Source: Flavobacterium sasangense DSM 21067
GTDB taxonomy: Bacteria > Bacteroidota > Bacteroidia > Flavobacteriales > Flavobacteriaceae
Assembly (NCBI RefSeq): GCF_000686885.1
Contig: NZ_JMLU01000006.1
Location: forward strand, 1 to 64,000
DNA length: 64,000 nucleotides
Direction of reading: 5' to 3'
Under the pieces are notes generated by a model. The model was given only the letters and a program-made list of their open reading frames with translations, was not told the DNA's origin and did not search any database. A program made the position numbers and the translations under genes. Shown one piece after another: positions 1-2,572 of the stretch (positions are counted from its first letter, which is position 1; the number at the start of each line of letters is the position of its first letter).

Positions 1-61
1 CTACTAATTCTTTTTGTGCAACGTCAATTCCCGCTACTTGCTTTACTACTTTTCTCATCAT
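1..61 (-). CDS. IS110-family transposase, N-terminal fragment (cut by window edge)
   Basis: Only the first 20 codons are inside the window. The reverse strand from 61 begins ATG ATG and encodes MMRKVVKQVAGIDVAQKELV. The GIDVAQKEL segment is the first strand of the RuvC-like DEDD domain, with its first catalytic Asp, as found at the start of IS110-family transposases. Either ATG (61 or 58) could be the start. The family recombines DNA through the DEDD domain and a C-terminal serine, guided by a bridge RNA encoded in the element's non-coding end. The rest of the gene lies to the left of the window, so an intact reading frame cannot be confirmed. Confidence 0.8.
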   Translation of the reverse strand, partial: MMRKVVKQVAGIDVAQKELV

Positions 62-89
62 TACTTTTGTTTAAAATTTAATCATAAAG

Positions 90-265
90 TGATGAATCTT
101 CCTCCGTCTTTTCTCCTGATTGGATATTCTGGATATTAAGATTCTCTTAATTCCTTACATTCTGTTCAGACTCTAAAAGATAAAAAGAAATGAGGTAATT
201 TCTTATATTCAATGTGCTTCATAGAGCTATTTGTCATTTAACTTACTCTCATCTCTTTTCACTTT
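90..265 (-). ncRNA. Candidate IS110 bridge RNA region
   Basis: This non-coding stretch lies directly upstream of the transposase, where IS110-group elements encode their bridge RNA. A minus-strand TAAATTTG (280-273) fits the TANNTTTG -7 box, so a transcript could begin near 265, although no TTG box is correctly spaced. Small hairpins are visible: AGAAAT/ATTTCT (186-191 and 198-203, 6-nt loop) and ATTAAG/CTTAAT (135-140 and 146-151, 5-nt loop). The end points are guesses. No covariance model could be run, and AT-rich DNA gives such hairpins by chance. Confidence 0.35.
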
Positions 266-368
266 ATTAATGCAAATTTAAAAATCATAACAACTTATAA
301 ATTAACTTTGCAAACATAGGAGTCATATAAGTTTTTAGAGTGAAAGCTTAAAAATTAAAGAAGTTCAT

Positions 369-1040
369 TTAAGATTGTAGCTTTTTCTTTAGTTGGATGA
401 TTTCTTCTGGATTTGCAGTTTCACTTCCATCCGTAATGGCGGATGAGTGATACCAATTCGCATTTACCATCTCATTTAATTCCGAAATATTAGTCGAACG
501 CAATCCACCACCAGGCATGATTTTGATTCGATTATTGGCTTGAATTACTAATTGTCTTAAAACTTCTTTTCCTTCCATCACATTTGGAAAAGTTCCAGAA
601 GTCAGAATAGTTGAAAATCCGCACGAGATGACATCTTCCAATGCTTTTTCGTAATTCGAAACGGCATCAAAAGCTCTGTGAAACGTACATGGAAATGGTT
701 TTGCTAAATCAACCAAAGCTTTGTTTTGTTCGATATTAATTGTTTTATCATCCTTCAAAACTCCAAAAACAAAGCCGTTGACTCCTAATTTTTTAATGAT
801 TTCGATTTCCGATTTCATTTGTTCAAATTCTGCTTCTGAGAAAACGAAATTTCCTCCTCTTGGGCGAATCATCACATATAAATCAATACTTAGATTTTTG
901 CGAGCTTGTTGAATCGTTTCGATAATTGGAGTTGTACCGCCAACCGACATATCTGCGCATAATTCTACTCTATCGGCTGCTGCTTTTTGAGCTATTAGAG
1001 CAGAATCCAGATTAAAACAAGCGATTTCTAGTTTCTTCAT
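369..1040 (-). CDS. cutC: CutC family protein
   Basis: A 223-residue TIM-barrel protein of the CutC family. Family signatures are clear: AADRVELCADMSVGGTTP near residues 21-38, VMIRPRGGNF near 56-65, TFHRAFD near 119, TSGTFPNVMEG near 148 and MPGGGLRS near 175. The family was named for copper homeostasis, but a direct copper role is poorly supported outside a few species. Here it is the last gene of a minus-strand operon with a hexosaminidase and a glycosylasparaginase, and its ATG overlaps the upstream stop (ATGA, 1040-1037). The context points to glycoconjugate catabolism rather than copper. Family assignment is firm; function is open. Confidence 0.92.
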   Translation of the reverse strand: MKKLEIACFNLDSALIAQKAAADRVELCADMSVGGTTPIIETIQQARKNLSIDLYVMIRPRGGNFVFSEAEFEQMKSEIEIIKKLGVNGFVFGVLKDDKTINIEQNKALVDLAKPFPCTFHRAFDAVSNYEKALEDVISCGFSTILTSGTFPNVMEGKEVLRQLVIQANNRIKIMPGGGLRSTNISELNEMVNANWYHSSAITDGSETANPEEIIQLKKKLQS

Positions 1041-1570
1041 TGTTGAATTTTTACTCTGATTTTCTTAAAATTACCATTTTCATCTTCATTCCATTGATCA
1101 TCACCAATTAAATAATATTGATTTTTATCTTTTACAATTCTATTTTCAAAATCCTTATCATTTGAAACAAAACCCTTTGTCTTTTGAATTTCTTGCCATT
1201 TATCATTTTGAAAAGACCAAACAGAAATAGAATTCCACCAACCTTCATGAGTTCTTGAAAAAATGATAATTTCATTCGCTCCATCAAAATTCAAATCTTC
1301 TATTTTTTTAATAGATACGCCATAACTTTGTCCAAAATCTATTTCAGGAATATTATTTGTGAAACGAATTATCATATCACCATATTCGTTTTGTTGATTA
1401 AAATTCACGAATGCGGTATCTTGAACTTTATCCTTGTTAACATCACCCACAAAGAAACTCTGTTTTTCTTCTGAAGTCTCTTCTAACTTATTAGTTTCAG
1501 TAATACTCTCTTTGGTTTTAGTTTCACAACTAAAAAAAATCAAGCCAAATATTAAAAAGAATAACTTCAT
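1037..1570 (-). CDS. Putative lipoprotein with beta-propeller-like (FG-GAP/VCBS-type) segments
   Basis: A 177-residue protein with a lipoprotein signal peptide: a hydrophobic start followed by the lipobox IFFSC, with Cys at residue 14. A charged linker follows, then segments such as VGDVNKDKVQDTAFVNF (about 42-58) and IEDLNFDGANEIIIFSR (about 90-106). Their D-x-N-x-D-G pattern resembles FG-GAP/VCBS repeats that bind calcium. It lies 3 bp after the glycosylasparaginase and overlaps cutC by 4 bp, so it belongs to the same operon. No specific function is recognised. A surface or periplasmic lipoprotein is the safest description. Confidence 0.7.
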   Translation of the reverse strand: MKLFFLIFGLIFFSCETKTKESITETNKLEETSEEKQSFFVGDVNKDKVQDTAFVNFNQQNEYGDMIIRFTNNIPEIDFGQSYGVSIKKIEDLNFDGANEIIIFSRTHEGWWNSISVWSFQNDKWQEIQKTKGFVSNDKDFENRIVKDKNQYYLIGDDQWNEDENGNFKKIRVKIQQ

Positions 1571-1573
1571 AAA

Positions 1574-2572
1574 CTATTTCAAAAAGTAATTCGCATCGAT
1601 TAATTTATTTCCTGTTGCGTCGTGAACGGCATAATTGAAGCCGCCTTGCACACAATACGAACCATATTCTCCTTTTTTATTCAAGGCAATGAACCCAACT
1701 TGGATATCTTTTAAATTTTTTCCTCGATTTTGTGTCAATTTTACAATTCGCATCACGGCTTCTTCGCACGCTTTTTGTGGTGATTTTCCCTGACGCATTA
1801 ATTCCACTACCAAATGACAGCCTGTAATTCGGATTACTTCTTCTCCATGACCTGTTGCGGTTGCCGCACCAATTTCGTTATCCACATATAAGCCAGCTCC
1901 AATAATTGGTGAATCGCCAACTCTTCCGTGCATTTTGAAAGCCATTCCGCTAGTAGTACAAGCTCCTGATAAATTTCCTTGTGCATCTAAAGCAATCATT
2001 CCGATGGTATCGTGATTTTCGATGTTGGCTTTTGGTAAATATTCACTGGTTTTTAGCCATTCCTTCCATTCTTTTTCGGAAGCTTCTAACAATAAATTTT
2101 CTTTTAGAAATCCTTGCGAGATGGCAAACTGCAAAGCGCCATCACCAACCAACATAACATGAGGCGTTTTTTCCATCACCATTCTTGCAACAGAAATCGG
2201 ATGTTTAATATGCTCCAAACAAGCTACCGAACCAATATTCGAAAATTCGTCCATGATACAAGCGTCTAATGTTACGCGACCATCTCTATCTGGGCGACCG
2301 CCGTAACCTACACTTCTTTCATTTGGATCACCTTCTGGAATTTTTACTCCGGCTTCAACCGCATCTAAAGCGCGACCTTTGTTTTTTAACACTTCCCAAG
2401 CGGCTTCGTTTGCTTGTAAACCGAAATTCCAAGTAGAAAGTACGATAGGTTTATTTACTTTTCCTGAATTGATATCGATTTCAGTTTCCTCAGATTTCCC
2501 ATTGAAAGCCTGAAACGCTACGCCAGCAGTTGCTAATGCGGTTGTCTTTAAAAAATTTCTTCTGTTTGTCAT
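1574..2572 (-). CDS. N(4)-(beta-N-acetylglucosaminyl)-L-asparaginase (glycosylasparaginase)
   Basis: An Ntn-hydrolase of about 332 residues that cleaves the GlcNAc-Asn bond left after N-glycoprotein digestion. The ATG at 2572 is chosen because MTNRRNFLKTT then opens a twin-arginine signal (RRNFLK) with a hydrophobic stretch. An in-frame ATG further upstream would lie inside the hexosaminidase gene. The HDTIGM motif supplies the catalytic Thr (about residue 189), the N-terminal residue of the beta subunit after autocleavage. The start overlaps the hexosaminidase stop as TAATG, which implies translational coupling. Export with hexosaminidase fits stepwise breakdown of glycoproteins. Confidence 0.93.
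   Translation of the reverse strand: MTNRRNFLKTTALATAGVAFQAFNGKSEETEIDINSGKVNKPIVLSTWNFGLQANEAAWEVLKNKGRALDAVEAGVKIPEGDPNERSVGYGGRPDRDGRVTLDACIMDEFSNIGSVACLEHIKHPISVARMVMEKTPHVMLVGDGALQFAISQGFLKENLLLEASEKEWKEWLKTSEYLPKANIENHDTIGMIALDAQGNLSGACTTSGMAFKMHGRVGDSPIIGAGLYVDNEIGAATATGHGEEVIRITGCHLVVELMRQGKSPQKACEEAVMRIVKLTQNRGKNLKDIQVGFIALNKKGEYGSYCVQGGFNYAVHDATGNKLIDANYFLK

What the first reader, a model, noticed from the sequence alone, without database searches (positions are those of the whole stretch)
62..343. Candidate IS110 bridge RNA with a possible donor-guide match to the element end
The window starts with 20 codons of an IS110-family transposase (GIDVAQKEL), and the 280 bp upstream have no open frame. 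IS110 elements are known to encode a bridge RNA in this kind of region. Seen directly: TTTTAGAGT (minus strand 178-170) is the exact complement of ACTCTAAAA (minus strand 342-334), the latter at the probable outer end of the element. That arrangement would fit a donor guide pairing with the left end, with a CT dinucleotide available as core. A 9-nt match in AT-rich DNA could be chance.
Basis: partly seen in the sequence, partly recalled or inferred. Interest (0 to 1): 0.75.

Follow-up and report, generated by a model that had tools for sequence, protein, structure and literature searches.

The report
Bridge RNA of an IS110 transposon
The stretch is the start of a jumping gene that carries a guide RNA telling it where to land; in relatives the guide changes in step with the landing site, and some relatives carry metal-transport genes along.

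Summary
The region is the left end of an IS110-group insertion sequence, and it encodes a bridge RNA (minus strand, about 262-85). The real boundary is the CT core at 322-321; the element starts at 320. Other copies in the genome and uninterrupted sites in two relatives show this. TTTTAGAGT (178-170) runs through stems of the donor hairpin. The 9-nt match is chance.

The guides are LTG 241-233, RTG 208-202, LDG 165-159 and RDG 117-113. Sixty-two sequences (its own and 61 relatives) fold into two hairpins with 34 of 39 pairs compensated. Right target guides covary with targets: all five non-core bases match in 42 of 51 clusters, against 109 of 2550 mismatched pairs. This copy sits in a dispersed host repeat.

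Two by-products look new. A related lineage carries 3-11 kb units with metal-transport and other genes, inserted at a site its RNA predicts, one shown inside a conjugative transposon. And 61 of 62 readable clusters lack the fourth catalytic aspartate that IS621 needs.

The parts
2..61 (-). first 20 codons of the IS110-group transposase (runs off the window edge; the contig starts here)
   Evidence: (window = contig C6:1-64000); homology
62..320 (-). left non-coding end (LE) of the element; the element begins at 320 (CCTATGTTTGC...)
   Evidence: same end in the relatives
321..322 (-). CT core dinucleotide shared by target and donor
   Evidence: flanks against uninterrupted sites; five copies in G440
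323..331 (-). left target (CTTATATGA), host DNA: part of a dispersed host repeat AACTTATATGACTTATATGTTTAAA
85..262 (-). bridge RNA, conserved region as modelled (transcript ends not measured)
   Evidence: 62-sequence alignment, structure
185..257 (-). target-binding hairpin (basal stem, internal loop with both target guides, apical hairpin)
   Evidence: helices 1 and 2 (17 of 19 pairs with a change on both sides); coordinates
233..241 (-). left target guide TTAAATGAC (8 of 9 with TTATATGA-C of the target, one base out of the family's main register)
202..208 (-). right target guide ATATAAG, exact reverse complement of core plus right target CT-TATAT
96..181 (-). donor-binding hairpin
   Evidence: helices 3-6 (17 of 20 pairs with a change on both sides); coordinates
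159..165 (-). left donor guide ACAGAAT, same as the last 7 bases of the right end
   Evidence: present in 62 of 63 clusters
113..117 (-). right donor guide AGGAG, reverse complement of core plus left end CT-CCT; its GG is paired in the small predicted helix 6
   Evidence: (AGGAG plus A or G in 59 of 63 clusters)
170..178 (-). TTTTAGAGT of the finding: structural, runs through the donor-hairpin stems, not a guide
   Evidence: helix 3 (178-176) and helix 4 (171-170)
311..318 (-). TATGTTTG, match to the flavobacterial -7 box TAnnTTTG; in the excised circle a TTG of the right end would lie 20 nt upstream
   Evidence: consensus seen in PMC9723704 passages
333..341 (-). ACTCTAAAA of the finding: host DNA outside the element, chance complement

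Best explanation
This is the left end of an IS110-group insertion sequence that encodes a bridge RNA upstream of its recombinase. Inferred cycle, by analogy with IS621: the element excises as a circle; its abutted ends form a donor (ACAGAAT-CT-CCTAT) and a Bacteroidota-type promoter that drives the RNA and the recombinase; the donor loop pairs with that junction, the target loop pairs with a chromosomal site, and the recombinase exchanges strands at the CT core. Shown here: the two-loop structure, the covariation of target guides with targets, nearly constant donor ends with matching stretches in the second loop, precise insertion between left target and CT in a dispersed host repeat, and several near-identical copies in the genome. 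Inferred: transcription, circle formation, binding and chemistry.
For: Copies: left ends at contigs C6, C25, C10, C14 and right ends at C36, C45, C35, C12, C16; three left ends are 100% identical over 331 bp. Uninterrupted site: the right flank of the window's copy is contig C16, and relatives G012 and G023 carry left and right flank together with no element (79-81% identity). Target: the repeat ACTTATATGTTTHAA occurs 12 times in the genome, the reversed control 0. Structure: 62 sequences, 39 pairs, 34 with compensatory change, 96.8% of cells paired against 42-49% when slid by 1-3 columns. Right guide: complementary at RT positions 3-7 in 92-100% of 51 clusters against 28-48% shuffled; 5 of 5 in 42 of 51 and at least 4 of 5 in 51 of 51, against 5 of 5 in 109 of 2550 mismatched pairs. 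Left guide: mean longest shared run 5.66 against 3.27 shuffled (sd 0.13), 61 clusters. Donor: right end reads ACAGAAT in 53 of 54 clusters, the RNA stretch carries ACAGAAT in 62 of 63 and AGGAG plus A or G in 59 of 63; left end reads CTCCTATGTTTG exactly in 44 of 54. Multi-copy check: five copies in G440 share ends and target. Promoter across the junction: TTG 20 nt upstream of the -7 box position in 42 of 54 clusters, about 0.5 expected.
Against: No transcript was seen. The single-sequence fold is only mildly better than shuffles (z -1.72, 9 of 200 shuffles as good). The left guide of this copy fits one base out of the main register, and cells off the main diagonal also reach z above 4. The shuffles ignore relatedness: clusters below 90% identity are still kin, so numbers of clusters are not numbers of independent events. 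Donor ends hardly vary and were part of the search motif, so donor pairing rests on fixed matches, not on covariation; the right donor guide overlaps the small helix 6, which has no compensated pair. No complete copy is assembled in this genome; only the window's copy had its left and right flank paired.
Confidence: 0.94

Rival explanations
1. One reading: TTTTAGAGT (178-170) is the donor guide and pairs with an element end at 334-343.
For: The 9-nt complement is real.
Against: The true end is at 322-320; the partner lies in host DNA, is absent from the other three left flanks and from two uninterrupted loci; TTTTAGAGT is mostly stem; chance gives such a match in 9-40% of resampled sequences depending on the search space.
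Confidence: 0.01
2. The region is only a structured 5' leader that regulates the transposase, with no guide role.
For: The same RNA could be part of the transposase transcript; small RNAs thought to modulate the IS110 member ISPpu9 are mentioned in PMC11208160 (passage).
Against: A leader would not make loop bases track the chromosomal target, element by element, over 51 clusters.
Confidence: 0.03
3. An IS1111-group element or a decayed remnant.
For: The window holds only the left end, cut by the contig edge; some relatives are broken (for example G105, two stops).
Against: The long non-coding end is upstream and the right end is short; copies are near identical and the locus is uninterrupted in two relatives.
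Confidence: 0.03

Closest known systems
IS621 and its bridge RNA (IS110 group; PMC11208160, PMC11208158; passages and one section seen)
   Same: RNA upstream of the recombinase, two internal loops, CT core, PF01548 plus PF02371, insertion into repeated extragenic DNA, promoter made by the joined ends (as described there). Recombinase profile matches IS621 at E 9e-31.
   Different: Different sequence family; the right target guide tracks the target over 7 bases including the core (IS621: 4, programmable to 7, passages); the recombinase subfamily has C, A, S or M where IS621 has the essential D105 in 61 of 62 readable clusters; hosts are mostly Bacteroidota.
IS110/IS1111 seekRNA elements (PMC11187229, passages seen)
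   Same: Upstream RNA in the IS110 type; target matches on both strands; instances of natural retargeting reported there (such as ISEc11 and ISXne4).
   Different: Here retargeting is seen over 51 clusters with a nearly constant donor; relatives carry cargo naturally, whereas the cargo in that paper's passages was engineered.
Transposons that ride on conjugative elements (Tn7-like and res-hunters; recalled, no call)
   Same: The cargo-bearing relatives insert at a recurring site, mostly beside a PRTRC-type ThiF gene, in L190 within a conjugative transposon.
   Different: Target choice by a bridge RNA and a single recombinase; no target-selector protein was recognised among the cargo proteins scanned (three elements).

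Membership tests
IS110 family (IS110 group) | recombinase with RuvC-like domain PF01548 and Tnp domain PF02371 | tested here: met
   relative L031; the window itself holds only 20 codons and has no Pfam match alone
IS110 family (IS110 group) | all four catalytic acids D, E, D, D | tested here: not met
   tblastn of the L063 protein against 63 clusters: first D 61 of 61 readable, E 62 of 62, third D 62 of 62, fourth position C 29, A 28, S 3, M 1, D 1 (L126). Not readable in the window's own copy, so this concerns its relatives. They remain IS110 by domains, ends, RNA and target covariation.
IS110 family (IS110 group) | conserved serine in the Tnp domain | tested here: met
   serine of the SGTSV motif in 61 of 62 readable clusters, L in one; the motif aligns with SGSSV of IS621; that it is S241 itself was not checked residue by residue
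IS110 family (IS110 group) | long non-coding end upstream of the transposase | tested here: met
   259 bp upstream (62-320); short right end in L031, L032 and the own right ends
IS110 family (IS110 group) | no target duplication beyond the core | tested here: met
   flanks against two uninterrupted loci; cargo element L186 against L198 and L215
Bridge RNA | two internal loops in one structured RNA | tested here: met
Bridge RNA | one loop matches target flanks and covaries with them | tested here: met
Bridge RNA | other loop matches the joined element ends | tested here: met
   fixed match ACAGAAT and AGGAG; no covariation test possible because the ends hardly vary
Bridge RNA | transcribed and bound by the recombinase | not testable with these tools
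   needs RNA sequencing or pull-down
IS1111 group | non-coding RNA region downstream of the transposase | tested here: not met
   right end is short, RNA is upstream
Rfam family | match at gathering score | tested here: not met
   window 1-2000 searched at E up to 10: 8 matches, best E 0.16, all below gathering score

The most novel reading that the evidence does not exclude
A subfamily of bridge-RNA recombinases, mostly in Bacteroidota, works without the fourth RuvC aspartate that IS621 cannot lose. It has also given rise to natural RNA-guided cargo transposons of 3-11 kb, carrying arsenite, chromate and cation transport genes, whose bridge RNA aims them at a recurring site beside the PRTRC genes of conjugative transposons, so that they travel between species.
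Probability: 0.7. Interest if true: 0.82.

Novelty: new member of a known kind. Interest (0 to 1): 0.64.

Why it matters
The family gives a clean natural record of a guide RNA and its target changing together while the donor end stays nearly fixed. That makes it a ready source of new, already diversified bridge systems. The relatives add two testable surprises: a recombinase that seems to do without an aspartate shown to be essential in IS621, and natural multi-gene cargo carried by a bridge-RNA element, which bears on how large an insert the mechanism moves in nature and on how metal-transport genes spread.

Tried and rejected
Rfam scan: only chance-level matches. Sigma-70 promoter scan: one weak site, fewer than shuffles give; replaced by the flavobacterial -7 box test. 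Pfam searches of the own genome found nothing, probably because no complete transposase is assembled; DNA searches did. The distant group G364 and G310 was fetched to test donor-guide covariation: the G364 copies could not be delimited by the strict shared span, and the shared span of G310 starts differently and was not taken further, so no donor covariation test came of it. My first reading of the boundary (331, the last base shared by the copies) was wrong: 331-323 is shared because the copies sit in the same repeat; the uninterrupted sites moved it to 322-321. Family-wide exact search for the cargo right end: 0 of 397 genomes, nearly all of other genera; so the cargo lineage with this target is shown only in Flavobacterium here. 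Uninterrupted sites for cargo elements were sought for 8: long matches on both sides for L186 and L187, only a 28-40-base left match for L190, none for L183, L184, L185, L189, L192. My note says that a ThiF gene is the right neighbour in 8 of 9 cargo elements; the table gives 7 of 9. L187 was first measured from an inner duplicate of the left end; its outer end is at 1654. L188 keeps the transposase and right end, but no left-end motif was found. One search chose proteins by the very motifs of the first three acids and the serine, so its counts for those are built in; one search repeated the reading without motif selection and found one exception (L126 keeps the fourth D). Rows left out: of 97 hits, 90 elements were kept (one per locus, CT start); 63 clusters; L121 was dropped from the structure alignment because its stretch was short (62 of 63 used); 51 clusters had a readable right target and 61 a left one. 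The element set was gathered by the left-end and RNA-core motifs (up to 2 mismatches each) and the right end by a motif (1 mismatch), so constancy of those is partly built in.

Full report
What is there. The window is the first 64 kb of contig C6 of a 3.16 Mb draft genome. The genus is Flavobacterium by inference: G004, listed as the same genus, has the contig of Flavobacterium sp. KMS (L063). Minus strand 61-2 starts a transposase. Its closest relatives over the left end are L031 and L032 (84% and 81% DNA identity). L031 has an open frame with both IS110 domains and matches the IS621 and ISCro4 chains; the frame of L032 (G105) is broken by two stops. The same left end occurs at the ends of contigs C25, C10 and C14, and right ends lie at C36, C45, C35, C12 and C16. 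The assembly broke at the repeats, so no complete copy is readable.

Where the element ends. The four left ends agree up to window 331 and then differ; the five right ends agree up to AATCTTATATGTT. The reason is that the copies sit in one dispersed host repeat, AACTTATATGACTTATATGTTTAAA; its form ACTTATATGTTTHAA occurs 12 times in the genome and its reversed control 0 times. The right flank of the window's copy is contig C16. In relatives G012 and G023 the two flanks meet at a related, uninterrupted form of the repeat (ACTTACATGC-CTTATATGTTTAAAA in G012). So the order is left target, CT core (322-321), element from 320. The finding's ACTCTAAAA (341-333) lies outside, in a host stretch of about 30 bases that the two relatives lack and that the other three left flanks do not share.

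The RNA. Sixty-two, the window's own included, were folded together. The consensus has two hairpins, each with an internal loop; 34 of 39 pairs have compensatory changes, 96.8% of cells pair, and versions slid by 1-3 columns reach 42-49%. The 5' hairpin (257-185) holds the target guides; the 3' hairpin (181-96) holds the donor guides (coordinates). TTTTAGAGT of the finding runs through the stems of the second hairpin. Folded alone, the window's RNA is only mildly better than shuffles (z -1.72).

Guides. For 51 clusters with a readable right target, the right guide is complementary at RT positions 3-7 in 98, 98, 100, 92 and 94% of cases, against 34, 45, 43, 28 and 48% with targets shuffled among elements. 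All five match in 42 of 51 and at least four in 51 of 51, against five in 109 of 2550 mismatched pairs; there are 28 distinct right-target pentamers. The left guide shows the expected diagonal (positions -6, -5, -4, -3, -1; z 4.1-7.0), though cells beside it also pass z 4, and a mean longest shared run of 5.66 against 3.27 in 61 clusters. In several elements, the window's own included, the best left fit is out of the main register. The shuffles do not correct for kinship. The right end reads ACAGAAT in 53 of 54 clusters and the left end CTCCTATGTTTG exactly in 44 of 54; the RNA stretch carries ACAGAAT (62 of 63) and AGGAG plus A or G (59 of 63), placed in the second loop by the alignment. Five copies in one complete genome, G440, have the same ends and CCGATA-type targets that fit their guide.

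Expression. Joining the ends places a TTG 20 nt upstream of the -7 box position in 42 of 54 clusters, with about 0.5 expected from shuffled right ends. TATGTTTG matches the flavobacterial -7 box TAnnTTTG (PMC9723704, passages). PMC11208160 and PMC11187229 describe a promoter made by the joined ends of IS110-type circles (passages). That it works here is inference.

Cargo-bearing relatives. In one Flavobacterium lineage of the same subfamily (three of its proteins 56-57% identical to L031), the right end was missing after the transposase in the eight loci looked at. The guide predicted the right target CTTTTCTTG (note). In nine genomes fetched over about 20 kb, an exact right end ACACAGAAT-CT was then found further down, followed by CTTTTCTTT: 8 of 9 predicted bases. 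Eight of the nine have a complete left end, giving units of 3.25, 5.0, 6.5, 8.27, 8.28, 9.26, 11.07 and 11.08 kb. Proteins of three units (L186, L187, L189) were family-scanned: chromate transporter, ACR3 arsenite efflux, ArsR-type regulator, a weak arsenate-reductase match below cut-off, sulfate permease, NhaA, CDF transporter, TonB receptor and others; the frames of all nine are listed. Two genomes hold the uninterrupted site of the 11-kb unit of L186: left flank ends at base 1508 and right flank starts at 1509 in both L198 and L215, at 88-94% identity; L207 does the same for L187 with a 2-base overlap, the core. For the other six units tested no such pair of long matches was found. The target TTTTGCTTCTTTTCTTTGG is present in 39 of 398 genomes of the genus and its reversed control in none. 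A ThiF-like gene lies near it in 27 of 30 sites looked at and beside 7 of 9 cargo elements; that of L186 is PRTRC ThiF (TIGR03736). Around L190 lie TraJ, TraK, TraM and TraN of a Bacteroidota conjugative transposon and PRTRC E; the other surroundings were not scanned for transfer genes. Searches for natural cargo in this family (listings; two papers, passages) showed only engineered cargo in what I saw; subscription papers and preprints are not in the library.

Catalytic residue. PMC11208158 (passages) names D11, E60, D102 and D105 as the RuvC site of IS621 and reports that mutating any of them abolishes recombination. A tblastn reading of 63 clusters finds the first D in 61 of 61 readable, E in 62 of 62, the third D in 62 of 62, but the fourth position C 29, A 28, S 3, M 1 and D 1 (L126, Brumimicrobium). 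The spacing from the third D to a conserved Trp is unchanged, 19 in 43 of 43, and the IS621 alignment is ungapped there. A more distant Flavobacterium group (NDSIDA) keeps D. Acids at reference positions 16 (43 of 43) and 103 (42 of 43) might substitute; that is a guess. The residue cannot be read in the window's own copy.

Verdict. The relatives give the more novel points.

Noticed in passing
L183-L187, L189, L190, L192 (L188 partly): IS110-group elements with metal-transport and other genes between transposase and right end (units of 3-11 kb), inserted at a site predicted by their bridge RNA; 7 of 9 beside a ThiF-like gene, one shown within a conjugative transposon.
   Followed up: yes
transposases of L031, L063 and relatives (RuvC domain, D105 equivalent): 61 of 62 readable clusters have C, A, S or M in place of the fourth catalytic aspartate, yet several members look recently mobile.
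   Followed up: partly
L051-L062; window 323-331 and C16 flank: Dispersed host repeat made of 8-9 base units (CTTATATGA-CTTATATG-TTTAAA, often with CTTTTATGAACTT some 35 bases upstream); its own function is unknown. Relatives sit in similar units of CTTTGCG, TATGTG or CGATAG type.
   Followed up: partly
L010 (1336, 1443), L187 (1654, 1761), L116 (1155, 1254): Some relatives carry two left-end motifs in tandem, as if one element had inserted at or beside the end of another.
   Followed up: no
L198-L227 around base 1500: The cargo lineage's target lies in a conserved stretch that looks like an inverted repeat (GCGAC...GTCGC followed by GGAAAGAAAAGAAGT) near ThiF-like genes; possibly a regulatory or terminator hairpin of the mobile element.
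   Followed up: no
window 369-1040: Gene next to the insertion reads like a CutC-type protein (named from recall); G012 and G023 keep this gene and the far flank together without the element.
   Followed up: partly
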